Assembly: GCA_021790475.1 (NCBI GenBank)
Contig: JAJYDU010000011.1
Location: 1-32,952, forward strand
Direction of reading: 5' to 3'
Origin: Planctomycetota bacterium
Lineage (GTDB): Bacteria; Planctomycetota; Phycisphaerae; WQYP01
Length of the DNA stretch: 32,952 nt
Positions 12,003 through 30,292 of the stretch are shown one piece after another. Under the pieces are notes generated by a model. That model saw nothing but the letters and a program-made list of their open reading frames with translations, had not been told where the DNA came from and searched no databases. The position numbers were made by a program, and so were the translations under genes. The first letter of the stretch is position 1; each line of letters begins with the position of its first letter.

Positions 12003-13079
12003 TCATTGCCCGGCACGGATGGCGGCGGGAAACTCGCCAACAATCGGGATCGTCAAACGATGTACCCCGTCACCGCTGTAGGTTACTATAACTGAGGACG
12101 CAATGAAGCCCGCGCCAGTTCTCGGTTTGATTAAAATCGCCAAGCCGGTCTGCGACCAGGCGATCACGGTGATCGAACGACTTCGCGCATGTACGGCGAC
12201 GATTCGCGGGTGCAAATAGGGCTCGAAGACGAACGCAAACCCGGCTCGGAGAATTCCGCTGTGGAAACGCCCGGGGCCGAAGATGAGCGACCCCGGCGTA
12301 ACGGCCAGCGATTTTTCCGGTTGCCCACACACCACAAGGGGGTCGCTAAACCGGCGAAGGATGCCGCGCGCCTCTTGCTGTGTGCCAACAACCCGTAATG
12401 TGGACGTTTGGGGAAAATCAGGCAGGTTCGGGCGCAAGGTGACCCTTACCTTGCCGAACTTACCTGGCGGCACAAGTAACCGCGTCCGTCTCACCGAGAA
12501 AAAGCTGCCGTCCACGCGCGGGACGACGATCCGCATCGGCCACGCCGTCGCATTGCTAATGAGCGCGAAGCTGGAAGGCGTCTTCCCAGATCCAGGAGTG
12601 AATGGGATGGTGCAAGAGCCCACGCCCAGCCCCGGTTCGACTGTGGCCGAAAATGTTCCGGCCAACAACACTTGGTCAGCCAGGCGCTTGGGCCGCATGT
12701 CGGAGACTGTGAATCCCCTGGCGTAATCGCCGGGGCCTGGTAGCGATCCCGAGTCGAAGGCTATAACCGCGCTCGTTGAGCGTCCCGGGGGTAGCATGGT
12801 TTTGTTCACAAGAACCGAAGTACAACTGCAACTCACGGCGGAGGTCAGGTGTAACTCCCTGCCCGTCTTGTTTACCAGAGTATATCTGCGCCTGACTGTT
12901 TGCCCCATTGCGATTTCAGGGAACCGGAAAGCTACCCTACTGATCGCTTTGTTCGTTAAGTATATCGGCGGGCGGCCGGCATGGCGGCTAAACCAGCGCC
13001 ACGCAACTATAATAATAACCAGTGCGCCGATTGTCACGAACGCAAGCAGGTATATGTAAGTAATTGCCTTGAATTTCAT
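12003..13079 (-). CDS. DUF1573-like membrane-anchored protein (copy B)
   Basis: N-terminal TM (ITYIYLLAFVTIGALVIIIVAW); RRRYTLVNKTGRELHLTSAVSCSCTSVLVNKTMLPPGRSTSAVIAFDSG resembles the DUF1573 Ig-like CxC core. Confidence 0.55.
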   Translation of the reverse strand: MKFKAITYIYLLAFVTIGALVIIIVAWRWFSRHAGRPPIYLTNKAISRVAFRFPEIAMGQTVRRRYTLVNKTGRELHLTSAVSCSCTSVLVNKTMLPPGRSTSAVIAFDSGSLPGPGDYARGFTVSDMRPKRLADQVLLAGTFSATVEPGLGVGSCTIPFTPGSGKTPSSFALISNATAWPMRIVVPRVDGSFFSVRRTRLLVPPGKFGKVRVTLRPNLPDFPQTSTLRVVGTQQEARGILRRFSDPLVVCGQPEKSLAVTPGSLIFGPGRFHSGILRAGFAFVFEPYLHPRIVAVHARSRSITVIAWSQTGLAILIKPRTGAGFIASSVIVTYSGDGVHRLTIPIVGEFPAAIRAGQ

Positions 13080-13162
13080 AGTCTATCCTTGTCTCTTATT
13101 GAACCACAGTCCATGGCGCGGCTCCCCGATGGGACACGGCAAAAGATCATCGCCAGGCGATC

Positions 13163-14206
13163 CTACCTGGCGGCGGCGGGTGTATTGTGGCCGAGCGGAA
13201 CATTGGGATTTTTATATCCATAAAAGTAGTCATGCGGTGGTACATGCCTACTGTCCTCGATAAAACTCCCATAGTTCGGCACGTAAACAAACGTCTTTGA
13301 CGGCAATCTGGGATTAATTCGGACGCGGTGGAACCTCATCACGTACATAGACTTCAATTTGTACGGGGAAAACTGCCATTCCCGTTTCGTGATCAGCCGG
13401 GGAAAATAATGCCCATGGCCGTCGCTGGAAAAATGCCGCTCTATTAAATCGAAGACCAATTTATTTTCCCCTCCGAACTGGACGAATACTTGCGTCCGGA
13501 GTATCTCCAGGCCCTTCCGCAGGCGTATCATGTAAACCAGGCGGAAGGAATAGAGGGGATACGGGAGGGACTTCCGCGATTTGTATACCACGACATAGGT
13601 GTGCCCCGGTTCGGGCGTAATTGACTTGAACTTAAAAAGTGCCGCCCAGGGCGTTCCGGGAACAAACGGCCCCACGCGCACTTTCAACTTCCACGCCGAG
13701 AAAGCGATCATCGCTTTCTTCAGGGATTGCAGGCCGAAGATAGAGAGGTAGCCAACATCCGGGATGCCAAGCCAATACCCAGGGCGGGTCAGCGTGACAT
13801 TCCAAGCGTTAGGACGGCCAGAAACGTAATCGGCCTGGGCGAACCATTCCTTCTTATCGTTGCGGACCCAGACGTTCACGGACGGCCGGTTCGGGTTCGG
13901 AATTTTTCCCGGGCCAACACGATCAGGGCCAACAAGGGATGCTCGGACGAGATTGTGCGGAATGTCCCATTGAAGGTGAACTTCGGCGGTGTAAGGGTCG
14001 GACACTCCGTACCATCCGTTGCCTACCCCGTATGTGTAGGTAAATCGCGCGCTAATGCTGTGAACCGCGTTGCGCGTGGCAGCAAGCATCGCCGCGACCT
14101 CGTGGGCCGTGGGAAGGGGGGGCTGTATGGTCTTGGCAGCGCGTGATCCGGGGATGGACGGCATTAACAGCGCCGTGACTGTGAGGATTCCGAAATAGCG
14201 ATTCAT
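13163..14206 (-). CDS. Secreted protein of unknown function (module B)
   Basis: MNRYFGILTVTALLMPSIPGSRAAK signal peptide at 14206 preceded by AGGAG (GCAGGAGTACCAATATG). Beta-rich sequence; vague resemblance to lipoprotein-carrier-type periplasmic proteins. Confidence 0.6.
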   Translation of the reverse strand: MNRYFGILTVTALLMPSIPGSRAAKTIQPPLPTAHEVAAMLAATRNAVHSISARFTYTYGVGNGWYGVSDPYTAEVHLQWDIPHNLVRASLVGPDRVGPGKIPNPNRPSVNVWVRNDKKEWFAQADYVSGRPNAWNVTLTRPGYWLGIPDVGYLSIFGLQSLKKAMIAFSAWKLKVRVGPFVPGTPWAALFKFKSITPEPGHTYVVVYKSRKSLPYPLYSFRLVYMIRLRKGLEILRTQVFVQFGGENKLVFDLIERHFSSDGHGHYFPRLITKREWQFSPYKLKSMYVMRFHRVRINPRLPSKTFVYVPNYGSFIEDSRHVPPHDYFYGYKNPNVPLGHNTPAAAR

Positions 14207-14797
14207 ATTGGTACTCCTGCTTTCACAACATATCCAATGAAGGGCCGCCCAGCCCATACGAACATAAGTGACAGAGTTGCCCGTGCGGGCCGCCACTGCA
14301 GGCCGGTCTGTTGCAGGCACTTTCACCGTGCCGTTGGTCGCAGCTTGATCACGTCGCAAGGCTTGCCTGCCCCGCCGGGACGAACCAATCAGCATAGCCA
14401 CCATCGCCGCATCCAGCAGGACGGTAAACCACGGGTTCACGTGCACCTGGCCAAAGCAGCCGCAGGATGCTTTTCCCGCCAGAGCTTCCCAGCAGGCATA
14501 GCCGCCAAAGAAAGCAAAGCAGCCGATTGCCGTGCGCCGGGCCGCAAGCGGCAGCGCCCCGCTGAGCAGCCAGAGTCCCAGGAAAATTTCCCAGCCGATC
14601 AATACGGGGGTGAATCCGGTTATTCCCAGCGGCGCCGGCATCGCCACCGGCGAATGAATGACCCGCCAGGCCTTCAGCCCCGCGGCCAGAAGCAACACCG
14701 CACCCGCGACAAGGACAACAGCTCTGGCCGGAGAAATCGCATCGGCACTACCCATCCGTCCCGCCATACCGGAATATGAAAAGTTTTTTCTTTTCAT
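14207..14797 (-). CDS. MauE/DoxX-like redox-associated membrane protein; frame continues without a stop into the downstream secreted-protein gene
   Basis: Several hydrophobic segments and a CGCFG motif (GKASCGCFGQVHVNPWFTVLLDAAMVAMLIGSS). ORF 13163..14833 has no stop before the next gene. Confidence 0.6.
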
Positions 14798-14988
14798 CCG
14801 CAATGACTCAATGTCTCGTAACGCCCGCAACAACCCGGCCCTTCACATCTACGCATACGTTCCCAAGCGAGCGCCCACTAAATACGATGGTGCACTGAAA
14901 CCGGCCAGTCGAACACAAGCAGGCACGTGCAATAGCACACGCACGACCTTATCGCGAGTCGACCGGGAAGAGCCTATCGTTCGTAGCT

Positions 14989-15621
14989 TCAACCTGCATC
15001 CGCTCCCTGGCGAAATCGCGAAATCGACACGCTTGTCGGCAATGACCGAAGCAGATCAGTCCAACCACGGATATAGAGGGATGATTCGACTTCGCCGCCG
15101 GGCGCAACATGCCCCAAATATATACTTTGTGGATATAATACTATGGGAGAATTTGAGACGGCGTCGCCACGAACAAATACCTTTAGCGACAGCCGATCCC
15201 TGTTGGATGCCGTCCGATACACGACTGCCACAGACTTGCCAAACGGGCCGAACGCTCCAGGAAATCCGCGGTAGGTGATGGAAAGTACGGCGCTGCCGCC
15301 AGGCGCCAGATTGCGCGGTGTGCAGCTTGCCGTGATGCAACTGCAACTCGGGATCACATGCTCTATCTCCACGATTCTTGCAGATTGGTTCGTCAAAGGG
15401 AAGCGGATGGTCGGGTGTTGCTGGGGGGCTATACGGCCAAAGTCGGCGAAATAGAATGCGGACAGGAGCGGACCCGCGCCGCTAGCCGACAACCCAGTGG
15501 CCGGCCACCGAATAAAACGCATCATCGCGAGAACAGCAATCCCGGCAAGCAGCACTCCAGTCACGAGCAATGCCGAAAAGGGGATCGGTCTGCCTTGTTG
15601 CTTACCAGTCAGCGTTTCCAC
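14989..15621 (-). CDS. DUF1573-like membrane-anchored protein (copy A)
   Basis: TM SALLVTGVLLAGIAVLAMM; TIRFPLTNQSARIVEIEHVIPSCSCITASCTPRNLAPGGSAVLSITYR. Putative GTG start at 15621 overlaps the stop of the upstream gene. Confidence 0.65.
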   Translation of the reverse strand: METLTGKQQGRPIPFSALLVTGVLLAGIAVLAMMRFIRWPATGLSASGAGPLLSAFYFADFGRIAPQQHPTIRFPLTNQSARIVEIEHVIPSCSCITASCTPRNLAPGGSAVLSITYRGFPGAFGPFGKSVAVVYRTASNRDRLSLKVFVRGDAVSNSPIVLYPQSIYLGHVAPGGEVESSLYIRGWTDLLRSLPTSVSISRFRQGADAG

Positions 15622-16841
15622 GACCAAATCCTCCGCCCGATCAGCCAAACAACAAATGCAAAACAAGCCAGTGATATCACCAATATCGTCCGCCAAAGCC
15701 ATGGCGACACACGGCTCCGCGCAGGCAAACCAGTAGCGCCGAGCGGGGGTGGCTTGGGCAAGACGGTTCTCGCGGTTGACTGAGCTGTGGAGCCGTCACG
15801 TGGTTCTTGTCCGTTCCCAACCGGTGCAGGCGGCTTGACAATCAAACTGCTGTCGTTCTGCTTGAGCAAAAGGTAAATCGCCGAGTCTGACATTTTGCGC
15901 GGACGGCTCTCGATGATAAAGCTGTGGTTGGTCCGTGTATCAAGCACACTGGCTCCTTTTGGAAATATGAGCAGATAACTGGATGGGATATTAGACTTCG
16001 AACCCAGTTTATAGTGCAGCCCTGTGAGCACCACTGTCTCAATGCATGCACCATGCAAACCATAAGGCAAAAATCTCGCAACAATCCGTCCCGGTAACTC
16101 GACGCCAGCGACGCTGCGGAAGTCCGAGCAGTACACGACATGCTCGCCGTCCCCTGGGGTCACAGAATCGCGAAAGCTAACAAGCTCAAGCATCGGTGTA
16201 AGCCGGAAAGTCCACCATTCAGTCCGTAGACCGCTGACACAGTTTACTACCAAGGTGTCGGCGCCACCGAGGCTGATCTTCATCTTCATGACATCCGCCG
16301 ATGTCAGCCAATGGCTGGCGCGCCAAGCCCGCAGCCCAAGCGCAACGTCAATCGTGGAATGCGGAAGCGGGGAGCTGTTGAAAATCTCGCCCAGCGGCCT
16401 ATTAGGCTCGTGGAGGTCCCAGATCAGCGATTCGGCGCGCTGCGGCGTATAGGTGTGAATTTCCTCGAGCAGCAGGCCAAGACCGGCACCACCGGGCACA
16501 ATCCGGCGCTCGTAAAGGGCCCGGCCGTGGAGAAACGAAAACCGGCATGTGAAACGTTGAATACCCATAGACAAAGACAAACGCCAATTCGGCTGGCTCG
16601 CCCTGAAACGTCTCCACCTCGCCACCAGGCTTGGAATAGGCGTATAATCAACCATCCGGTGGTAGGTAACCGTTAGATTCTCGATCTTTTTTATTCGGCG
16701 GATAACCCTGTCGAGGGTGGACAAGACGGACGCCGAAGAGGAAGTGTTCTGTGCGTGCGAGACCTCCGCACGCGCAACTCCCCTTGTCGGTAACTGAAGG
16801 ATCAGCCCGGCCAATAAAATTGCCACACGCGTAATCCGCAT
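15609..16841 (-). CDS. Secreted/periplasmic protein with signal peptide and C-terminal TM (module A)
   Basis: MRITRVAILLAGLILQLPTRGVARAEV signal; C-term PWLWRTILVISLACFAFVVWLIGRRIWSWKR TM with basic tail. Confidence 0.6.
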   Translation of the reverse strand: MRITRVAILLAGLILQLPTRGVARAEVSHAQNTSSSASVLSTLDRVIRRIKKIENLTVTYHRMVDYTPIPSLVARWRRFRASQPNWRLSLSMGIQRFTCRFSFLHGRALYERRIVPGGAGLGLLLEEIHTYTPQRAESLIWDLHEPNRPLGEIFNSSPLPHSTIDVALGLRAWRASHWLTSADVMKMKISLGGADTLVVNCVSGLRTEWWTFRLTPMLELVSFRDSVTPGDGEHVVYCSDFRSVAGVELPGRIVARFLPYGLHGACIETVVLTGLHYKLGSKSNIPSSYLLIFPKGASVLDTRTNHSFIIESRPRKMSDSAIYLLLKQNDSSLIVKPPAPVGNGQEPRDGSTAQSTARTVLPKPPPLGATGLPARSRVSPWLWRTILVISLACFAFVVWLIGRRIWSWKR

Positions 16842-16901
16842 CGTTGTTTCTCCGATTTGACCATCTTTCCATCTGCCGAATAACGACCTAACCTAACACG
16901 A

Positions 16902-17198
16902 TCAGGCAATCTGGCCACAGGGGTCCGAGCCTGCACCGCAGCCATTCACATTCGCAGTTCCGGAGCCGATCGCCATTGTGCAACCGGAGTCGGCGTAAAT
17001 AACATACGAACCGCAAGGTACCATCGATCCTGCTGAACAGTAGTACTCAAAGTCAGCACCACCCGGCGGGGTGCAGGCATTGTATGCTTCCGCTGTGAGC
17101 ACCCAATAAGCGTCGAGCTGCGAGTTCCAAGAACACGGTTGAGCGCAGCCGGTGTACAAAGTGCAGCACTCGTATTCCTGTGGTTCACTGGCAGCCAT
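16902..17198 (-). CDS. Small Cys-rich peptide (10 Cys in 98 aa); true start possibly at ATG 17236 with a frameshift
   Basis: MAASEPQEYECCTLYTGCAQPCSWNSQLDAYWVLTAEAYNACTPPGGADFEYYCSAGSMVPCGSYVIYADSGCTMAIGSGTANVNGCGAGSDPCGQIA; first gene of the minus-strand redox series. Confidence 0.55.
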   Translation of the reverse strand: MAASEPQEYECCTLYTGCAQPCSWNSQLDAYWVLTAEAYNACTPPGGADFEYYCSAGSMVPCGSYVIYADSGCTMAIGSGTANVNGCGAGSDPCGQIA

Positions 17199-17225
17199 CG
17201 CCGGCGGGCAGGCAAGGGGGGACGC

Positions 17226-17247
17226 GGAGGAATCATGGGGATCCTCC
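17226..17247 (-). promoter_or_regulatory. Inverted repeat around SD and start codon upstream of the Cys-rich peptide
   Basis: Plus strand GGAGGA-ATCATGGGGA-TCCTCC: 6-bp perfect stem, 10-nt loop containing the ATG (17236..17234); the SD AAGGAGG is in the stem on the minus strand. Confidence 0.4.
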
Positions 17248-17352
17248 TTGCCTACCGGCAGGCAGGCTTTTTACCGCACAGCCAAAGCCGGCACGGAGCT
17301 TCAGGCCGCCGTAAACTATTACACAAATATGTATATATGTCGTATGGTGATA

Positions 17353-17365
17353 CCCCCCCCCCCCC
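17353..17365. repeat. 13-nt C (minus strand G) homopolymer followed by (AT)n
   Basis: Direct reading: TA-CCCCCCCCCCCCC-ATATATATA-G at 17351-17375. Confidence 0.9.
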
Positions 17366-17418
17366 ATATATATAGTCCCGGTCCGGCAGCTTGTGGTGCG
17401 GACCTCCAGGTCTGCCGT

Positions 17419-17540
17419 GCAACGACTGCGGGGTGGGAGACCGGTCGCCACAAAGTCCCCAGCCCGGTACGCCTCGCTTGGCAACGACTGCAGGTCGGGT
17501 GACCGGCGCCACAAATCTCCATCCCGGTGCGCCCGCTTGC
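17419..17540. repeat. Imperfect tandem repeat, two copies of about 60 bp (period 62)
   Basis: Copy 1 GCAACGACTGCGGGGTGGGAGACCGGTCGCCACAAAGTCCCCAGCCCGGTACGCCTCGCTT at 17419; copy 2 GCAACGACTGCAGGTCGGGTGACCGGCGCCACAAATCTCCATCCCGGTGCGCCCGCTT at 17481. Confidence 0.8.
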
Positions 17541-18115
17541 TGAGGCGCGGCTCTGTGGCAATTCCGGCAGGCATGGCGATAAGCCGTCTGCGACTCTGGC
17601 GTTCCTTGGCATTGGTTTACAAACGTGCATGGTCAGCCTCGTTTGCGTTACGCACAGCTTTTTTTCACCCATGCAGCCGCAACATGCGACGCGGCTGTAT
17701 ACCGAATACTTGGATAGTCTAATCCAATTCCGATAAAAAGCAAGAGAAAAATTGTCGGCCCGCGGTCAGGAATGTTGTAACTACTGGTTATACTGGCACT
17801 TACGCGCCTATAAATTATGAAGAGATATTGAAATTCCACCGCAGGCGAAGATTATTCCAAGGATTTCACACATTCGCCACAGTGAACTCGCCATGGCGAA
17901 TCTACTTTTCTACTCAACGCCGAGGGCCCGAAGTATAGTCCCCAGAAAAGCATGATTTCCACACCGTGAACGGATACGAAAAAACTGCCGCGCGCATTCC
18001 CTGGATCGCCGGCCGCGCTATTTTACTTTTGCCCCGTCGAAACGTAACATATTCTCATGGATTGCAACGCCGGGGGATTTTCTTACCCTCCATCATTTTC
18101 AACAGGAGTGTTCCC

Positions 18116-19267
18116 ATGAATCCGCGAATGAAATATTACCTGGTCGGCGCGCTGGCCTGCCTGGCGGCGGCCGCCGTTTTACTGAACTTATCCGGCGTTT
18201 TAAGCGTATCGCGCGCCGCCGGCTCCGGCGCAACGCCTCCGGGCGAAAAAGCCGCCGTCGGCTCTCTCCAAACGAAGCTGCTCCGGGACGGCCGCAAACT
18301 GGATCATCTGCTGCGGGGCGCCGCGCCGACCGCTTTATTTACCGATGCCATACTGCGGGGCCGGATAGGGCCGAAAATTGTTCCAATACTGTGGGATATA
18401 GTTACGCGTGTCGATTCGTTTAGCAAACAATTTCCCGGCGCCGCCGCCCACGTCCGGTATCTGAAGTATCATTATCTGGCCCTGCTCGAACTGCTCGGCA
18501 ACGCCAGGGCCGCCGCCCGTTTGAAGGCGGCGCTCCGGAGCAAATCAAAAACCACGGTGCTGGCGGCCCAACTGGGCCGTTTGGAAGTGCAATGGTGGCA
18601 AAACGTTCATCATGCCGCCGGGCAACAAGCGGTTCTGCAACACTTGCGGAAATTGGTCCGCCAGGATCCCACCGATGATGATTTTACCGCCGTGGTCTAT
18701 TCCATGTTCCGCGGCGGCGCCGCCGACCATGCGATCGCGCTGGCGGTCCGCCATATTCTGCTCCATGAACTCAAAGGCCCGCTCGCCCGCGCCATCCAGA
18801 GTTCCCTCGAGGGTCCGCGGCGCCAACAGGCCCTGCTTAACAAACCTCTGGTAATTTCGGGCCCCACCATAACCGGAAAAAATTTCAGCAGCGCCCAATG
18901 GAAAGGCAAGGTGGTGGTGGTGGACTTCTGGGGAACGTGGTGCCCATGGTGCCGCCGCGCCATACCACACCTGGAAGCGCTCTATGCGAAGTATCACAAG
19001 CAGGGGTTTGATCTTCTGAGCGTGTCCAACGATCAGAGCAGAGCGACGCTTCGCAATTATCTCAAGGCCCATCCCCAAATGGTTTGGCCGCAGATATATG
19101 ATCCCGCCATGCCCGCCAAGTACAACATTGAAGGTTTTCCCACCCAGTTTGTAATCGACCGCGGCGGTGTGCTGCGGGATATTGTTGTCGGCTATAACCC
19201 GAAAGGGCTTACGCGGGACGTGACCCAATGGCTCAACCCCAAGCCGGTTTCGCTTCCGGGTAAGTAA
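18116..19267 (+). CDS. TlpA-family thioredoxin-like protein with large N-terminal helical domain (paralog 1, WCPWC)
   Basis: Start MNPRMKYYLVGALACLAAAAVLL with CAGGAG upstream; KGKVVVVDFWGTWCPWCRRAIPHLEALYAKYHKQGFDLLSVSND...IEGFPTQFVIDRGGVLRDIVVGY. Confidence 0.9.
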   Translation: MNPRMKYYLVGALACLAAAAVLLNLSGVLSVSRAAGSGATPPGEKAAVGSLQTKLLRDGRKLDHLLRGAAPTALFTDAILRGRIGPKIVPILWDIVTRVDSFSKQFPGAAAHVRYLKYHYLALLELLGNARAAARLKAALRSKSKTTVLAAQLGRLEVQWWQNVHHAAGQQAVLQHLRKLVRQDPTDDDFTAVVYSMFRGGAADHAIALAVRHILLHELKGPLARAIQSSLEGPRRQQALLNKPLVISGPTITGKNFSSAQWKGKVVVVDFWGTWCPWCRRAIPHLEALYAKYHKQGFDLLSVSNDQSRATLRNYLKAHPQMVWPQIYDPAMPAKYNIEGFPTQFVIDRGGVLRDIVVGYNPKGLTRDVTQWLNPKPVSLPGK

Positions 19268-19346
19268 TCAGGCCTCGATTGGGCGCCTGGACAAGGGCTT
19301 TCCAGTGCCTTCGCAAATATCGCGAAAGAAAACCTGTCGGGTGGGA

Positions 19347-20558
19347 ATGATCGCCCGCCTGTCCGCCACTGTGCTCCTGGGTCTTGCGGGCGCCTGGAAT
19401 GTGTCGCGCGCCGCCGGCGGTTCATCCGCGGTCTTTCGGCGCGAAAAAACCGCCTTTGCCTGGCTGAAAATAAAGATCGGCGAAGACACTCGCCAACTCG
19501 AACATTTGTGGCGGGGGACTTCGCCCGCCGCCATGTTTACCGATGCGAAGCTGCGGGCCGGCCTCAAACCGAAGGTCGCCCCGATTATGTGGGATATTGT
19601 CACACGCGTTGATGCGTTCAACAGGCGATTTGCGAACTTCGCCGCGCATACCCGTTATCTGAAGTATCGTTATCTGGCCCTGCTCGAACTGCTCGGCAAC
19701 GCCCGGGCGACCGCTCGTTTGAAGGCGGCGCTCCAGAGCCAATCGGCCGCCACGAAACTGGCCGCTCGTATGGCTCGTCTGGATATCCGATGGTGGCGAA
19801 ATGCGCGGGACGCCACCGCCCAGGGCGCCGTGCTGGCCCAAGTGGAAAAGCTGGTCCGGCAAAACCCTCGCGACGACGATCTGACCGCCGTCGTGCTTTC
19901 GATGAGCCGGTGCGGCGCCGCCGACCAGACAATTGCCCATGAAGCCCGCCATATTCTGCTTGATGAACTCAAAAGCCCATTGGCCCGAGTGATCCAGACC
20001 TCCATCTTCGGCCCGCGGCGCCTCCGCTCATGGCTTGATAAGCCTCTCGTAATCCGTGGAATCGCCCTCGGCGGCAAACAGTTCAGCAACGCCGCCTGGA
20101 AACCGGCTGATGCGCGGGAAATGTTCGCGGCGGCCATCACCGACGGCAGGCCGTTCAGCAGCGCCGCCTGGAAAGGGAAAGTGGTTCTCGTTAATTTCTG
20201 GGCTGCATGGTGTCCTCCCTGCCGCGCGAGTATTTCAGATTTGGAATCATTTTACCGCAAGTACCACAGGAAGGGTTTGGAAATCGTCGGGATACCCAAT
20301 GACAACAGCGCCGCGGCTCTGGGCAGTTTTCTCCAGCAGCATCCGAAAATGGTATGGCCGGAGCTTTTTGATCCCCAGCGGCATGGCTGGAACCCCCTGT
20401 TGGCCCGGTATAATGTCAGCGCAATCCCGACGCAGTTCATTATCGATCAGCAGGGAATTCTCCGAGCCGTGATCGTCGGGTATAAACCCAGGCGAGTTGC
20501 GCGGGCCGTGCTGGCCCTGCTCGCCCCCAAGCCTGGTCCGCCGCACGGCGGACCATAA
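19347..20558 (+). CDS. TlpA-family thioredoxin-like protein (paralog 2, WCPPC)
   Basis: KGKVVLVNFWAAWCPPCRASISDLESFYRKYHRKGLEIVGIPND...SAIPTQFIIDQQGILRAVIVGY; co-linear with paralog 1. ORF open from 19305. Confidence 0.9.
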   Translation: MIARLSATVLLGLAGAWNVSRAAGGSSAVFRREKTAFAWLKIKIGEDTRQLEHLWRGTSPAAMFTDAKLRAGLKPKVAPIMWDIVTRVDAFNRRFANFAAHTRYLKYRYLALLELLGNARATARLKAALQSQSAATKLAARMARLDIRWWRNARDATAQGAVLAQVEKLVRQNPRDDDLTAVVLSMSRCGAADQTIAHEARHILLDELKSPLARVIQTSIFGPRRLRSWLDKPLVIRGIALGGKQFSNAAWKPADAREMFAAAITDGRPFSSAAWKGKVVLVNFWAAWCPPCRASISDLESFYRKYHRKGLEIVGIPNDNSAAALGSFLQQHPKMVWPELFDPQRHGWNPLLARYNVSAIPTQFIIDQQGILRAVIVGYKPRRVARAVLALLAPKPGPPHGGP

Positions 20559-20608
20559 CGACTCCGGCGTTCGTCGAGTAGAGGCCTTAACGGAAAAGAC
20601 AGGGGAAC

Positions 20609-21124
20609 ATGGGACCACGCTCCAAGCGAACCAGCTATTACGAGGCCGCGTTCGAGGATTATTTGCGCCGCAAGGGATTGCCATACATCGCCGTGGACGA
20701 GGCGAAAAAGGCGCTTTTTGCCGGGGCTAAACTCAAAAGTTTTGATTTTGTCGTCTATCGGCCGCAAGGCGCCAACCTGCTGGTGGATGTGAAGGGCCGG
20801 AGTTGCGGCAAGGCCGCGAGCTCCAACGCCACGCTGCCCAACTGGGCCACTCGGGAAGACATCGACGATCTGCGGCAATGGCAGGAAATTTTCGGCGGCG
20901 GCTTTACCGCCATGTTTCTGTTCATATACCACTGGCCAAGTTCGCCTGACCAATCGCCCTTCAGGGAACTCTTTCAGTTTCAGGAACGCTGGTACGGTAT
21001 GTTGACCATCGGCGTCGGCGATTACCGCGCACACATGCGGGCCCGCTCGGAATCCTGGGGCACGGTCCATCTGCCCACCGCCGATTTTCGCCGTTTAGCC
21101 AAGCCGTTTGATGAGTGCTTGTAG
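20609..21124 (+). CDS. HYExAFE family protein (putative PD-(D/E)XK nuclease-like fold)
   Basis: TSYYEAAFEDYLRRKGLPYIAVDEAKKALF; FDFVVYRPQGANLLVDVKGRS gives a D...DxK-type core. Confidence 0.7.
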   Translation: MGPRSKRTSYYEAAFEDYLRRKGLPYIAVDEAKKALFAGAKLKSFDFVVYRPQGANLLVDVKGRSCGKAASSNATLPNWATREDIDDLRQWQEIFGGGFTAMFLFIYHWPSSPDQSPFRELFQFQERWYGMLTIGVGDYRAHMRARSESWGTVHLPTADFRRLAKPFDECL

Positions 21125-21243
21125 ACTCTGGCTTGGCATTGGAATCCCGGGGCGCATAAAATGATCCGTATCCACGCCTCGCCGGTTCCGCCCGGCGCGC
21201 CGAGCGCGGGACCGGTTTTTCCTTTAACGTAAGGTTCCGAACG

Positions 21244-22632
21244 TTGTTGTCCGGCAATTCCGAGGATTCCCCCAAAGCCCGGCGTTGGTGGACGGTGGGA
21301 ATATGGGCCGTTGTGACGGTTCTCACACTGATCCTGGCGATCCAGGCGCGCAATCGTCAGATTCATGATCTCGCCGCCGCGCACCCCGTAGACATCAACG
21401 ACTTCAACCGCTGGTTGCGAATGCTGCCGGGATTTCTCCATTCGCATCTGGCGATGCGCAACGACCTGTGGCCGATGCCGCCGCTGACGATTCTTTTGTT
21501 TTCTCCCTTTTCGCTCCTTTCTTTTCCCAACGCCCAGTTTGTGTGGGTGCTTTTCAAGCCGCTGCTGCTGGCAGTCATATTCTATTGCAGCCTGGGAATC
21601 GTCCGGCGGGCGGGTGGGAGGGTGGAATCTTTACCGCTGTTGCTTATCCTTCTGGCGTGGTTGTGGCCGGTAATCGGCGACATGCAGGAGGGGCAGGTGA
21701 ATCTGCTGATGCTGGCGCCGCTGGCGGCCGGGTTGTATTTTGCGCAGTCGGAAACAGCCTGGGGAGACCTTCTGGCAGGCGGCCTGATCGCCCTGGCGAC
21801 GTGTATCAAGGTCACCCCGATTATCTTTCTGATCTATTTGCTCTGGCGGAGACGTTGGCGCGCGGCGGCGGCCCTGGCCATCGGAGTTGTTTTCTGGCTT
21901 TATTTGCCATTAAGTCTGTTCGTCGGCTGGCGGCAATCGTTTCTGTGGAACCAGCAATATTTTCACATCATGATCCTGCCCTATGTGGTGCACGGCGCGG
22001 TGCAAGTTCCGACGGGAGAATCCATTCCCAGTTTCCTGCTGCGACTGCTTTCCCGCATACCGGCGTTTCATACGCACCACCACGGTGTGACCATATCCTA
22101 TTACGTGAATGTGTTAAATTTGTCCGTGCCCACATCTCGTCTGATTATTCGGTTGGTGCTGGTGGGTATCGGACTGGGCGGACTCTTCTGGATGCGCCGC
22201 CGACTGCCGACGTTGCGTTGCAGGCGCTACGTGCTGGAAATCGGCGCGATCGCCGCATTTATGCTCTGGGCGGAAGAGTGGTGCTGGGTTCCGCACTACG
22301 TGACGCTGATTTTCACGCTCATGGCGGCAGCCATGATCGCCACCGACCAATTCTCGCCCAGGGCGGCCGCGCGGCGGGCGCTGGCGGCGCTGGCGGCCGC
22401 CGCGTTTCTAATGGCGATGACCTCCGACGTGATCAAGATTTTCGGTCCGCACGCCGGCAACTGGGGGCGGACCATTGATCCCGCATTATTTGCGGGTATT
22501 TTGCTGGTGCTGGCGATCATGACCACCGGCTATTCCCATGCCGCGGCTATTGCCCCCGGCCAATCCGTACCCCAGCCGCCGCCGCAGGTTGCGCCTCCGG
22601 GACGGAAAGTCGAAAGCCCTGAGCGTTCGTGA
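21244..22632 (+). CDS. GT87/DUF2029-like polyprenol-phosphate mannosyltransferase-type membrane protein
   Basis: Multi-TM; DINDFNRWLRMLPGFL..., WPMPPLTILLFSPFSLLSFPNAQFVWVLFKPLLLAV, GQVNLLMLAPLAAGLYFA, GLIALATCIKVTPIIFLIYLLWRRRWRAAAALA. TTG start assumed. Confidence 0.8.
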   Translation: MLSGNSEDSPKARRWWTVGIWAVVTVLTLILAIQARNRQIHDLAAAHPVDINDFNRWLRMLPGFLHSHLAMRNDLWPMPPLTILLFSPFSLLSFPNAQFVWVLFKPLLLAVIFYCSLGIVRRAGGRVESLPLLLILLAWLWPVIGDMQEGQVNLLMLAPLAAGLYFAQSETAWGDLLAGGLIALATCIKVTPIIFLIYLLWRRRWRAAAALAIGVVFWLYLPLSLFVGWRQSFLWNQQYFHIMILPYVVHGAVQVPTGESIPSFLLRLLSRIPAFHTHHHGVTISYYVNVLNLSVPTSRLIIRLVLVGIGLGGLFWMRRRLPTLRCRRYVLEIGAIAAFMLWAEEWCWVPHYVTLIFTLMAAAMIATDQFSPRAAARRALAALAAAAFLMAMTSDVIKIFGPHAGNWGRTIDPALFAGILLVLAIMTTGYSHAAAIAPGQSVPQPPPQVAPPGRKVESPERS

Positions 22633-22714
22633 AGGAAAGTTTACCTCTGTAATTTACGCCCTTTATTGGCAGCAGGCGCAAAAATTCCCAAAAAGTGAAA
22701 ACGGATAGTGAAAA

Positions 22715-23266
22715 TCAGCGTCGTATCGGTTCCAGGATCGATTGCGTGCGAATCAACGCGCGCACCTCGCCTAGAAGGTGAAATCCTTCAATATGGATCG
22801 CGCGCCGATGCAACTGGGTCACGAGCACGCTAAGATACTCCGTCCGACCAAGATCATTCTTGCGGTGTGCAACCAGCCCGTCCTGCTCTTGAGCCAGGCG
22901 AAGCATTTCCGTAACTGAGTTTTCAAACAACGCCTCGGTGACGTGCTCTTCGTTCAGAGCCAGGTAATAATAATAATCGTCGCCCAGCGCCAGATCGAAC
23001 TGCTTATCGCCTTTGCACGGCAGTTTCTCTATCAGCCCGCGCTCGGGCAGGGCCTTGTTGGGAAAACAGGCCAGTTCCAGAAACGTATGGGCGCCGGAAA
23101 TGGCCGCCATGTGTCCGCCACCGGTCAGCAGCCACAGGTTAACATCAAAATCGCCCATTATGCGAGCGCGGCGCACATCAGCGGCGAAAAGTTCAGGATG
23201 CAGAATGCGATCATAAATAAGCACCGAAAGACCGGCGCTGCGGGGTTTTTTGTGATGAACACCCAT
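22715..23266 (-). CDS. Uncharacterised protein, possibly DUF2617-like
   Basis: Probable start MGVHHKKPRSAGLSVLIYDRILHPELFAADVRRARIMG; ORF extends to 23560 but the upstream part is low-complexity and basic. Family name is a weak recall. Confidence 0.4.
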   Translation of the reverse strand: MGVHHKKPRSAGLSVLIYDRILHPELFAADVRRARIMGDFDVNLWLLTGGGHMAAISGAHTFLELACFPNKALPERGLIEKLPCKGDKQFDLALGDDYYYYLALNEEHVTEALFENSVTEMLRLAQEQDGLVAHRKNDLGRTEYLSVLVTQLHRRAIHIEGFHLLGEVRALIRTQSILEPIRR

Positions 23267-23765
23267 CGTTGATTCTTTGTTTTGTTTCACAACGGCTCCT
23301 TCTGGCATCTTAACAGTCGATTTCTGACGTCTCATACTCTTCTTACGATTCAAAATCGCCGCCGGCTCGCTGAATTTTTCCGGATTCGGCCTGATTTCTA
23401 TCCGGCGGCCATTTGCACATCTCCGTTGATTTTCCACAGTTACGGCTTCTTGCGGAACATTGTAACTTTTTTTCACAAGGCCGCCTCCTTTTCCACGCTT
23501 GTAGTAAGCAAACTCCGCACGGTAAAACTTTCTCCGTACCAAACACCACATCTCTGGCATGGATTGAGTTTACCCCATGTCGAGCATTGGCGGCCTGGCC
23601 TGACACCATGCCCTGCGGCAACTGGAATTCTCAAGCTGCCGTAAGACATTATACCATAATAAGCTCACAATGAGTGAAAATTTTTACAAATCGTTAAAAT
23701 ATTCGCAAAGACGATTGTAAAAGGACAATCTGGCGGCAGGTTCGTCGTGGGCAAGAAAGCGCATA

Positions 23766-24701
23766 TCATTTGATTTGGGCTTCGCCCCGGCCGGCCAGCG
23801 CCGCCTTGCGATATTCCGTCGGTGGCAGGCCATCGATCCGGCGAAAGGCGCGTGAAAAGTGGAATGCGTCCGTGAATCCCAACTGGCGGGCAATTTGTTT
23901 GATGGGGCGGTCTATGTTCAGCAGCAGTTGCTTCGCCATGGCCACCCGCTGGCGGAGCAGGTACTCCATGGGTGAATAACCGGTCCATAATCGAAACAAG
24001 CGGTTGAAGTGGGAGCGGGAAAAACCCGCCGACTCGGCCAGCGTGGCGGCTGTGAGCTTTTCCGCCGGATGCAAATCCATATACGTCAACGCCCGTTGCA
24101 TTTTGGCCCGTATAACCGGATCCGCACCCGGCGATCGCCGTGCGTCTGGATCGGAAAGCATTTGGATCAGAATCTGCAACAGCAAGCAGCGCGATTCGAG
24201 CATCCCCAATCCCGGCGCGCCGGGATCCCGCCGGCGGGCTTGAACCAGCCGCTCCAACTTCTCCGCCCGGGGGTCCAGCGCCGCAAGCCGGCTGACTTCG
24301 GGAATCACCCGTCCGCCCTCCAGCACGATTTGATATGGTTTTCGCCGATCGATGCGCGCTCCTCCCGGTACGACCCGCGCCGCGAAATCGAAATGAACCG
24401 CAATGTGCGCGCAGGGAATTTCATCGCGGGTGTTCAAACGGTGCGGCACGAACGGCGCAATAAGAAATAACCGGCCGGGTTCAATTTTTTCCGTCCGCCC
24501 CGCGACCTGAAAAATTCCCCGGCCCTGTAAAAAGAGAACCAGCTCGTAATCGAAAATGATCCGCGTGGGAATATGCAAGGGGCCGTGCAGTCGATGCGCG
24601 ATGCGAATGACGGGATTCAAGCGTTCCAAAGGTAACGAAATCCGCCGCCGCGGACGCGGCGGTCCAAACAACGAGCGGCGTTCGATTGCCGTCATCCGCA
24701 T
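23766..24701 (-). CDS. AraC family transcriptional regulator
   Basis: LTAATLAESAGFSRSHFNRLFRLWTGYSPMEYLLRQRVAMAKQLLLNIDRPIKQIARQLGFTDAFHFSRAFRRIDGLPPTEYR; N-terminal cupin-like sensor. Start MRMTAIERRS at 24701. Confidence 0.93.
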   Translation of the reverse strand: MRMTAIERRSLFGPPRPRRRISLPLERLNPVIRIAHRLHGPLHIPTRIIFDYELVLFLQGRGIFQVAGRTEKIEPGRLFLIAPFVPHRLNTRDEIPCAHIAVHFDFAARVVPGGARIDRRKPYQIVLEGGRVIPEVSRLAALDPRAEKLERLVQARRRDPGAPGLGMLESRCLLLQILIQMLSDPDARRSPGADPVIRAKMQRALTYMDLHPAEKLTAATLAESAGFSRSHFNRLFRLWTGYSPMEYLLRQRVAMAKQLLLNIDRPIKQIARQLGFTDAFHFSRAFRRIDGLPPTEYRKAALAGRGEAQIK

Positions 24702-24777
24702 GAATGTCCTTCCACCTGCACCGCGTGCGTATATACGAAGCCCACGGCGCGGTAATTCTTTCGGGAGGCCCTGGGAG

Positions 24778-24796: not shown

Positions 24797-24999
24797 AACG
24801 GTAAGCGCGGCTGCCCCCGGTCGCCAATGCCTTTCGGAGGCGTTTTCCCGGCGGCGAATATGGCCCTCCGTTGGTCAAGCACGCGCACATCCCGGGAAAA
24901 TCGCCGCGCCGGGATCCAAAGTGCGGAAAATCTCCTCTCCCTGTATTATGCCGGTTCTGATAGATATTGTACGATCCATATTATACTCGGACTGGGCGT

Positions 25000-25491
25000 A
25001 TGCCAATGTCAACCAGGCAGCGACGCGGAAAATGGAAAGTTTCCCTGGCGGTGCTGGCGCTGTTTATCCTGGGGCTGACCGTGGCGAACCTCTCCTTTTG
25101 GCGATCCGTGTTGCGTTCGACGGCGGGTTGGAAATCACCGGTGGACCGCATGGGATGGCTGACGGATTTTCAGACCGCGGCGCGGCGGGCGAGAAACCGG
25201 AAGCGGCGGATTCTGATCGATTTTTACGCCGCATGGTGTGCGCCGTGCCGCCGGATGGAACGCGACGTCTGGTCGGACGAAAAGGTGGACCGCGCGGTGC
25301 AGCGGCGCTTCATACCGCTGCGTGCCGATGTTGATACGCCCGCGGGAAAACAGCTGGTGCGGCGGTATAAAGTCCGGGCCCTGCCAACCATACTGATCGT
25401 CAGCGCCACGGGGAATCTGCGCCGGGTCGCCTGGACCATGAACCGGCGGCAAACATTGGAATTCATACGCGCCGCCGGAGCGGGAAAATGA
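25000..25491 (+). CDS. Membrane-anchored thioredoxin-fold protein (DsbD-gamma-like)
   Basis: TM VSLAVLALFILGLTVANLSFW; RRILIDFYAAWCAPCRRMERDVWSDEKVDRAVQRRFIPLRADVDTPAGKQLVRRYKVRALPTILIV. Confidence 0.88.
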   Translation: MPMSTRQRRGKWKVSLAVLALFILGLTVANLSFWRSVLRSTAGWKSPVDRMGWLTDFQTAARRARNRKRRILIDFYAAWCAPCRRMERDVWSDEKVDRAVQRRFIPLRADVDTPAGKQLVRRYKVRALPTILIVSATGNLRRVAWTMNRRQTLEFIRAAGAGK

Positions 25492-28852: not shown

Positions 28853-28880
28853 CGCCCCGGGGAAAATCGGGCGTTTTTTT
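28853..28880 (+). terminator. Terminator-like hairpin immediately upstream of tRNA-Lys
   Basis: CGCCC-CGGGGAAAATC-GGGCG then TTTTTTT (28874-28880); the tRNA begins at 28881. Confidence 0.5.
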
Positions 28881-28953
28881 GAGGCCGTAGCTCAGTTGGT
28901 AGAGCAACAGACTTTTAATCTGTGGGTCCTGGGTTCGATCCCCAGCGGCCTCA
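28881..28953 (+). tRNA. tRNA-Lys (anticodon UUU)
   Basis: GAGGCCG/CGGCCTC acceptor, TAGCTCAGTTGGTAGAGCA D-arm, CAGACTTTTAATCTG anticodon arm with TTT, CTGGGTTCGATCCCCAG T-arm, discriminator A; no encoded CCA. Confidence 0.97.
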
Positions 28954-30292
28954 TTTTTCCCGCAGGCTGCACCGTGGTGCAGAATCCCGCATTTTCCTGC
29001 GAAATATGCGTGTTTTTGGCGTCCGCTGGTTTTGCCTGCTGTGCAGGAAAATGCGGCTTGTGGTGCCAAAAAGCAGGTTCCGTGGTGCAACCTTTGGTGC
29101 AACCCAAAGTGACGTGCGCTTCCACGTCCGCCCCTTGGTCGCTGGGTTTCACGGTGACCTCCCCAGTGACCTTCGGCTGCTCGTTGCCGAATCGGGGCAA
29201 GCGGGCCATGGCATCCAGTATTGGCAGTTGAGTAACGTCTGTGTATACGATATTGGTAAGCCGTTGGTCCGAATGTCGCATGATTTCTTGCGCCGTTCGC
29301 GGCGATACGCCGGACCGAGCCAGTAGCGTGGCGGTGGTATGGCGCATGGAATGCCAGTCGATCACCCGGCCTTGCGCGTCCACACGGCATATGCCGGCAG
29401 CCTTCAGTTCTGCGTAAAACCTCCGCATTTTGCGTGGCTCCATCACGCCCTTAAAAACCGGTGCCATAGGTTCTGGGGCGCTTGGTTTGAGGCTACGCAG
29501 TTCGGCAACCAAGTCATCACGCAGCGAGAGTATTGCGCGCTTGCCATTCTTGGTGGTGCTGGCTCTCAACTCCACGAACGGATTAGAGGCGTCAAGATGG
29601 ACATCACCCCATTGCAATTGCCGCATTTCTCCGCGGCGAGCACCTGTGAGGATGGCGAACAGATATGCCACCTTTCGGTGCCCGGCGACCGCAAATAGCC
29701 TCTCGATCTCGTCAATTGTTAACGCCCGCCGTTGTCGGCGAATGTTCCCGTTTATCTTTACTTCGGAAATATTCGCCAGCGGATACTGTGGCAATCGACT
29801 GAGTCTCACACACCAGCGGCAAAAAGCTCGGGCCGTGCCAAGGTAATGGTTTAAAGTCTTCGGAGCAGCTTCGCTCTGCTCTTCGCGCCAGCGAATGAAG
29901 GAATTGGCAGTGATGTCAGGCAAACGAGTCCAGTTACAACTCGCAGCCAGTTTTTCTAATCGCTTCTCGTTAATATAAATATGAGCCTTATCGCGGCCGG
30001 CGGCATTCAAATCGGCTAGATACTCCCGGACATGCTCACTCAATGGTTTTTTGCGATGTTCGGCAAAGCGATCGATAAGGCCCTGCTCTCCCCAGGCCAG
30101 CCGCTTCTCGTGATCTGCCGCCTTGGCGGAGGTGGCGGTCTAATCCGAGTAGCCGGGATAACGCCGTTTATCGCCAATTACCTTGTAGTACCAGATACGG
30201 CTTCGGCCACGTTTCGCACCCGGCACACTTCTCCGACAAGCCTTGCCGGTTTTCGGGTTGATCCAGATGGAACGTTTGAATACGCTTGCCAT
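28892..30292 (-). pseudogene. Tyrosine recombinase/integrase of an integrative element, interrupted by in-frame TAG at 30142-30140
   Basis: Same-frame upstream reading from ATG 30292 (AGGAGG SD): MASVFKRSIWINPKTGKACRRSVPGAKRGRSRIWYYKVIGDKRRYPGYSD*TATSAKAADHEKRLAWGEQGLIDRFAEHRKKP then LSEHVREYL... Catalytic motifs TGARRGEMRQLQW, HSMRHTTATLLARSG, IMRHSDQRLTNIVYTD. Confidence 0.85.

What the first reader, a model, noticed from the sequence alone, without database searches (positions are those of the whole stretch)
12003..20558. Candidate undescribed redox/peptide locus: Cys-rich peptide + MauE-like + paired DUF1573-like/secreted proteins, divergent from two TlpA-like thioredoxins
Minus strand in transcription order: 10-Cys peptide, secreted protein A, DUF1573-like A, MauE-like CGCFG membrane protein, secreted protein B, DUF1573-like B. 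Two TlpA-like proteins (WCPWC, WCPPC) run the other way from the same roughly 0.9 kb intergenic region. In methylamine dehydrogenase maturation, MauE plus the thioredoxin-like MauD support production of a small disulfide-rich subunit. By analogy (inference), this locus could oxidise, export or display the Cys-rich peptide. The secreted and DUF1573 proteins fit no single known pathway that I recognise.
Basis: partly seen in the sequence, partly recalled or inferred. Interest (0 to 1): 0.85.

Follow-up and report, generated by a model that had tools for sequence, protein, structure and literature searches.

The report
Decayed operon for disulfide-rich secreted proteins
A group of uncultured planctomycete bacteria carries many copies of an undescribed operon that appears to export small, highly variable, disulfide-locked proteins together with their own disulfide-forming machinery; the copy in this window is real but partly broken, and the two thioredoxin-like genes beside it are unrelated neighbours.

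Summary
The genes are present and the locus belongs to a recurring, apparently undescribed operon family in Planctomycetota genomes. Core order: membrane-anchored beta-propeller, Cys-rich exported protein, LolA-like secreted protein, DUF1573 protein, MauE (usually with a fused thioredoxin domain). In 15 of about 41 propeller ends with readable downstream sequence, the Cys-rich gene starts -40 to +90 nt from the propeller stop. Its leader is conserved while the mature part is hypervariable. Cysteine counts in the mature part are even in 28 of 30 proteins (p about 4e-7), as expected if every cysteine is paired. DUF1573 proteins keep a CxC motif and MauE proteins a CGCFG motif. I infer dedicated export and oxidative folding of a diversifying secreted protein. 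The target is unknown.

The window copy is degraded. The propeller and the peptide's signal sequence are missing at one junction (17199/17198), DUF1573-A is frameshifted, and MauE lacks its thioredoxin domain. The "0.9 kb intergenic region" is mostly the multicopy 5' region of propeller operons. The two TlpA genes are not part of the system: in the sister species the same pair sits elsewhere without the locus. Assembly error at the junction cannot be excluded.

The parts
17199..17874 (-). Multicopy 5' region of propeller operons, ending with the first 38 nt of a propeller gene (ATG at 17236, MIPPRPPLPARRR...), then cut
   Evidence: 87-90% identical copies on contigs C28 (L066) and C111 (L067) and a more diverged one on C151 (L069) run into the propeller N-terminus; the corresponding region lies upstream of the propeller in the sister species (L084 9312-9598)
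16902..17198 (-). Cys-rich exported protein, mature part only (98 aa, 10 Cys); leader lost
   Evidence: 46-47% identical to G145 and G091 proteins next to secA, DUF1573 and MauE homologues; match starts at residue 36 of the 166-aa relative
15609..16841 (-). SEC-A: signal peptide, LolA/LolB-like domain, C-terminal membrane helix; intact
   Evidence: AlphaFold2 pLDDT 68; Foldseek top hits LolB/LolA, E 7e-7, prob 1.0; matches residues 22-433 of the 433-aa L083 homologue
14989..15702 (-). DUF1573-A (CSC motif), frameshifted by an 8-bp tandem duplication at 15026-15011; homology continues in another frame to about 14861
   Evidence: Pfam PF07610 52 bits; tblastn frame change
14363..14797 (-). MauE-like membrane domain (CGCFG); the thioredoxin domain fused to it in relatives is missing
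   Evidence: PF07291 29.9 bits; tblastn aligns only residues 35-156 of the 379-aa relative L086
13163..14206 (-). SEC-B, second LolA-like secreted protein, in one open frame with MauE
   Evidence: family secB recurs after the Cys-rich gene in L086, L099, L103, L110; SEC-A and SEC-B related by profile comparison, E 5e-7
12003..13079 (-). DUF1573-B with N-terminal membrane segment and CSC motif
   Evidence: PF07610 34.5 bits; recurs after secB in L086, L090, L099, L103, L110
11704..11970 (.). Dispersed repeat at the downstream edge of the locus
   Evidence: 86-96% copies on contigs C21 (L071) and C7 (L043)

Best explanation
The locus is a damaged copy of a multi-copy planctomycete operon that makes an exported, fully disulfide-bonded protein of variable sequence together with its own folding and handling machinery. 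Shown: the recurrent gene order propeller - Cys-rich protein - LolA-like protein - DUF1573 - MauE(-thioredoxin); a conserved leader joined to a variable mature part; even Cys counts; conserved CxC and CGCFG motifs. Inferred: the leader sends the Cys-rich protein through the inner membrane; the MauE-thioredoxin pair oxidises it (MauE passing electrons into the membrane, as DsbB or VKOR do); the CxC of DUF1573 reshuffles wrong disulfides or relays thiols; the membrane-anchored LolA-like protein holds or ferries the product; the propeller is its surface anchor, receptor or sensor. In the window, loss of the propeller and of the leader, plus the frameshift in DUF1573-A, probably makes this copy non-functional. 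A fuller copy exists on contig C90 of the same genome.
For: Operon recurrence: the Cys-rich gene starts -40 to +90 nt from the propeller stop in 15 loci; nine loci have the Cys-rich gene plus DUF1573 plus MauE, and five more have the Cys-rich gene plus MauE without DUF1573. Even Cys count in 28 of 30 mature parts (p about 4e-7) and in 21 of 22 sequence clusters (p about 5e-6); similar ORFs found by chance in the same loci give 8 of 17 even. Leaders are significantly similar in 83 of 231 pairs, mature parts in 31; three tandem proteins of L087 share 88-97% of the leader while their mature parts align only over short stretches. CxC in every DUF1573 protein checked, CGCFG in 16 of 16 MauE proteins, CxxC in the fused thioredoxin domain of 9 of 11 long MauE proteins. 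DUF1573 occurs as a selenoprotein with a UGC motif, supporting a redox role (PMC9312934, PMC13188914). MauE is thought to act in disulfide formation, and MauE sits beside precursors with at least 8 Cys in Streptomyces candidates (PMC7794033). Damage in the window. Fuller copy on C90: L044.
Against: No experiment shows disulfides, secretion or interaction. Roles for the LolA-like protein and the propeller rest on fold and gene order only, and both models are of moderate confidence (pLDDT 68 and 65). About half of the propeller loci, mostly distant paralogues, lack a Cys-rich gene. The proteins are related, so the parity p-values are not from fully independent observations. MauE alone without a thioredoxin domain occurs in several loci, so the redox module varies. 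The assembly is fragmented at these repeats, so the window junction could be an assembly error.
Confidence: 0.55

Rival explanations
1. The Cys-rich proteins are secreted antagonistic effectors (bacteriocin-like), diversified by competition, with the propeller or LolA-like protein serving immunity or delivery.
For: Conserved leader with hypervariable Cys-rich mature part and several copies per genome; weak Sublancin Pfam match for one member (E 0.006); MauE beside Cys-rich candidate RiPP precursors in Streptomyces.
Against: No toxin or immunity family, no dedicated ABC exporter or Pfam-recognised leader peptidase in the core operon; PADLOC finds nothing; mature parts are 75-140 aa and mostly acidic, unlike most bacteriocins.
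Confidence: 0.2
2. The Cys-rich protein is a structural or binding subunit of a surface complex with the propeller, stabilised by disulfides and assembled with pilin-like proteins.
For: Immediate propeller-Cys-rich gene pairing; DUF1559/prepilin-type genes follow in L084, L086, L087, L090, L103; propeller domain resembles periplasmic or surface propellers such as BT4663 and PorZ.
Against: Hypervariability of the Cys-rich part while the propeller is well conserved is not what a fixed interface would give; pilin-like genes are missing from many loci.
Confidence: 0.2
3. It is a methylamine-dehydrogenase-like system: propeller as heavy subunit, Cys-rich protein as light subunit, MauE and thioredoxin for maturation.
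For: Same types of parts: propeller, Cys-rich small protein with a leader, MauE, thioredoxin-like protein.
Against: No Pfam match of 20 Cys-rich proteins to the light-chain family; Trp, needed twice for the TTQ cofactor, is absent or single in most mature parts; the propeller matches Reg_prop, not the heavy-chain family.
Confidence: 0.04
4. The unusual layout of the window (no propeller, leader-less peptide, TlpA next door) is an assembly chimera at repeats, and the true locus is intact elsewhere.
For: Both edges are multicopy repeats; left and right flanks lie on different contigs in the sister species.
Against: Damage also lies inside the unique part (frameshift in DUF1573-A, missing thioredoxin domain). 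In this genome the sister's neighbours of both flanks lie on long contigs C133 and C69 that continue into other sequence, which fits real rearrangement.
Confidence: 0.3

Closest known systems
MauE-containing candidate RiPP families of Streptomyces (decRiPPter, PMC7794033)
   Same: MauE homologue (one with MauD) beside a precursor with at least 8 cysteines; disulfide formation proposed
   Different: Different phylum; text describes no propeller, LolA-like or DUF1573 partners; here a conserved leader and fused MauE-thioredoxin
mau operon (methylamine dehydrogenase maturation, MauE/MauD)
   Same: MauE plus thioredoxin-type protein beside an exported Cys-rich small protein; a propeller protein is also encoded
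   Different: No MauA or MauB family match, no conserved Trp pair; LolA-like and DUF1573 partners
BT_3928 family (NCBIfam NF045576, MauE-type redox protein, Bacteroidetes)
   Same: Best NCBIfam match of the MauE proteins (37 bits)
   Different: Far below the family cut-off of 250; only the MauE region aligns
Two-component regulator propellers (Reg_prop, e.g. BT4663)
   Same: Propeller fold and Reg_prop repeats
   Different: No kinase domain found; followed by a conserved C-terminal region without Pfam match
LolA/LolB/RseB superfamily
   Same: Predicted fold of SEC-A
   Different: About 10% identity; SEC-A and its closest relatives have a C-terminal membrane helix; no lipoprotein role shown

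Membership tests
DUF1573 (PF07610) | Pfam score over the curated cut-off | tested here: met
   52 and 34.5 bits against 26.1
DUF1573 (PF07610) | CxC redox motif (UGC in selenoprotein forms) | tested here: met
   CSC in both window proteins; CxC in all relatives checked
MauE (PF07291) | Pfam score over the curated cut-off | tested here: met
   29.9 bits in the genome scan against 27; 26.6 on the fused ORF, so borderline; relatives score up to 62
Methylamine dehydrogenase system | Light-chain family match for the Cys-rich protein | tested here: not met
   No such Pfam match for any of 20 members
Methylamine dehydrogenase system | Two conserved Trp for TTQ | tested here: not met
   Most of the 22 mature parts have no Trp or a single one
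Methylamine dehydrogenase system | MauE plus thioredoxin-type protein | tested here: met
   Fused MauE-thioredoxin in relatives
LolA superfamily | Fold | tested here: met
   Foldseek E 7e-7, prob 1.0 to LolB/LolA, model pLDDT 68
LolA superfamily | Carries lipoproteins | not testable with these tools
   needs biochemistry
RiPP | Leader-guided enzymatic modification beyond disulfides | tested here: inconclusive
   Conserved leader present; no modification-enzyme family found in the core genes scanned
Reg_prop two-component sensor | Histidine kinase output domain | tested here: not met
   Only Reg_prop over cut-off in the relatives' propellers

The most novel reading that the evidence does not exclude
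Planctomycetes carry a bacterial counterpart of conotoxin-style diversification: a fixed leader feeds a dedicated export and disulfide-folding apparatus, while the disulfide-locked mature domain is swapped and mutated freely, with a cognate propeller gene beside each copy and repeats between copies that promote reshuffling.
Probability: 0.2. Interest if true: 0.85.

Novelty: new variant of a known kind. Interest (0 to 1): 0.58.

Why it matters
If right, this is an operon family dedicated to oxidative folding of one variable exported protein, with MauE-thioredoxin fusions and CxC DUF1573 proteins as natural partners. It gives a concrete testable role to DUF1573, a family of unknown function, and to MauE outside methylamine metabolism, and offers a source of disulfide-rich scaffolds. 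For the window itself, the lesson is that the striking layout comes from decay and rearrangement, not from a new TlpA-linked pathway.

Tried and rejected
- Role of the TlpA pair: rejected. Its homologues occur in all 28 family genomes. In the sister genome the same pair, with its HYExAFE/GT87-side neighbours, lies at 92.8% identity next to other genes.
- Mobile element upstream of the peptide: reinterpreted as the shared 5' region of propeller operons, since it leads into the propeller start in three contigs and lies upstream of the propeller in the sister species.
- Methylamine dehydrogenase subunits: no family match, no conserved Trp pair.
- Anti-phage defence: no PADLOC match.
- Peptide family outside the bacterial family f1: only weak hits, the listed ones in unrelated proteins.
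- A C39-peptidase-like reading of the domain fused to DUF1573 in L041/L093: suggested by eye, not supported by Pfam or NCBIfam, so not used.
- Literature: no description of this operon found in the open-access library searched. Subscription papers were not searched.

Full report
Check of the observation. Pfam confirms both DUF1573 proteins over cut-off, Redoxin domains in both TlpA-like proteins, and a borderline MauE (26.6 against 27 on the fused ORF; 29.9 in the genome scan). The peptide and the two secreted proteins match no Pfam or NCBIfam family. MauE and secreted protein B are one open frame of 556 codons.

Recurrence. A search of 200 genomes of the class found clear peptide homologues in two genomes of the same family (E 3e-21 and 3e-14) and weaker ones whose position next to a SEC-A homologue supports them. 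In those loci the order is Cys-rich gene, LolA-like gene, DUF1573, MauE, and a large protein with two-component-regulator propeller repeats lies directly upstream. That protein is absent from the window.

The operon family. A scan of 85,488 species genomes with the propeller alignment gave 47 loci, about 40 of them in Planctomycetota or Phycisphaerales records, several per genome; the weakest hits are Bacteroidetes records and stray ones. Mapping them gives a consistent core: propeller, Cys-rich exported protein, LolA-like protein (several subfamilies), DUF1573, MauE with a C-terminal thioredoxin-like domain, then often a DUF1559 prepilin-like gene and a pair of TPR-like genes. The Cys-rich gene begins between -40 and +90 nt of the propeller stop in 15 loci. 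L080 (the same locus as L041) has three tandem Cys-rich/LolA-like modules and an ECF sigma factor gene. A leader-only profile searched in 400 genomes of the class found strong hits only in the window's own family (12 genomes), so the system looks lineage-restricted.

The Cys-rich proteins. They share a leader (consensus MFxxIRxRFNWRSGKxRLxxAAAxCAAGLxIGxGG) followed by a mature part of about 75-140 residues with 6 to 14 cysteines. Leaders are alike in 83 of 231 pairs and mature parts in 31. In L087 three tandem proteins have leaders 88-97% identical with mature parts that align only over short stretches, and in L080 two have 86% against 27%. The number of cysteines in the mature part is even in 28 of 30 proteins; the two exceptions lose their odd cysteine if the leader cut or the C-terminal extension is read slightly differently (inference). 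One protein per cluster gives 21 of 22 even. Similar ORFs elsewhere in the loci are even in 8 of 17. Even parity is what full disulfide pairing predicts; it does not prove it.

The partners. All DUF1573 proteins examined keep a CxC motif; all 16 MauE proteins keep CGCFG; 9 of 11 long MauE proteins keep a CxxC in the fused thioredoxin-like domain. DUF1573 is listed among selenoproteins with a UGC motif (PMC9312934; PMC13188914), which fits a redox role. SEC-A is modelled with a LolA/LolB-like fold (pLDDT 68; Foldseek E 7e-7) and has a C-terminal membrane helix. The propeller is modelled with a BT4663-like propeller near its N-terminus (Foldseek E 3e-15, model pLDDT 65), an N-terminal membrane helix and no recognised kinase.

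The window copy is degraded. The 676 bp upstream of the peptide are multicopy in the genome. In contigs C28, C111 and C151 the same sequence runs into the propeller gene, ATGATTCCTCCGCG... (MIPPRPPLPARRRVFAAWWK...). In the window it stops 38 nt into that gene and jumps to the mature part of the peptide, out of frame with the propeller start. tblastn finds no other propeller remnant, finds DUF1573-A split over two frames at an 8-bp tandem duplication, and finds only the membrane half of MauE. Contig C21 holds a still more reduced remnant: repeat, a MauE fragment, then the downstream repeat. A fuller copy lies on contig C90 (L044): propeller cut at the contig edge, 12-Cys protein, LolA-like protein, DUF1573, start of MauE.

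The TlpA pair is a bystander. In the sister genome G040, window 1375-11574 matches contig C43 (92.9% and 87.9% identity) and window 18008-24714, with both TlpA genes, matches contig C80 (92.8%); neither has the Cys-rich locus at that place. The sister's other neighbours of these flanks lie on different contigs of the window's genome (C133, C69), which continue into unrelated sequence. So the locus sits at a rearrangement breakpoint, or at an assembly join through repeats; reads are needed to decide.

Mechanism. The best-supported model is Sec-type export guided by the conserved leader, oxidation by MauE-thioredoxin, correction or relay by the CxC of DUF1573, and handling by a membrane-anchored LolA-like protein, with the propeller as partner or anchor. 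Gene order, motifs, parity and leader/mature contrast are shown; each biochemical step is inferred. MauE has been proposed to act in disulfide formation of the methylamine dehydrogenase beta subunit, and MauE genes beside precursors with at least 8 Cys were listed as candidate RiPP clusters in Streptomyces (PMC7794033). That is the closest published parallel found.

Limits. Relatives are mostly fragmented metagenome assemblies. One 6.4-kb contig is nearly identical in genomes assigned to three genera, which points to binning errors or recent transfer and warns against counting genomes too literally. Gene calls used a simple longest-ORF rule and start codons are uncertain. Literature coverage was open-access only.

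Noticed in passing
window 17199-17874; L066 216-898; L067 64-540; L069; L071 6148-6444: The same 5' region, ending at a CCGCCGGCGG palindrome, is joined to three different genes (propeller start, MauE start, Cys-rich mature part) in one genome; repeat-mediated reshuffling of operon starts, or assembly joins.
   Followed up: partly
L177, L178, L179 (G040:C23, G145:C191, G085:C59): A propeller to MauE operon contig is 99.7-100% identical over 4.8-6.5 kb in genomes assigned to three genera: binning contamination or very recent transfer.
   Followed up: partly
window 28880-30043: tRNA-Lys overlapped by the 3' end of an integrase-like ORF on the opposite strand, as at the attachment end of an integrative element.
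   Followed up: no
L104, L107, L111, L117, L118: Distant propeller paralogues are followed by a different conserved set (families c15, c11, c19), without a Cys-rich gene: possibly a sister system.
   Followed up: no
window 17966-20558: Two adjacent TlpA-like paralogues with a long N-terminal region before the thioredoxin domain, WCPWC and WCPPC; homologues in all 28 genomes of the family.
   Followed up: partly
window 24967-25491: A third small thioredoxin-like protein (YAAWCAPCRRM) with an N-terminal membrane segment, just upstream of an mnmE-like gene.
   Followed up: no
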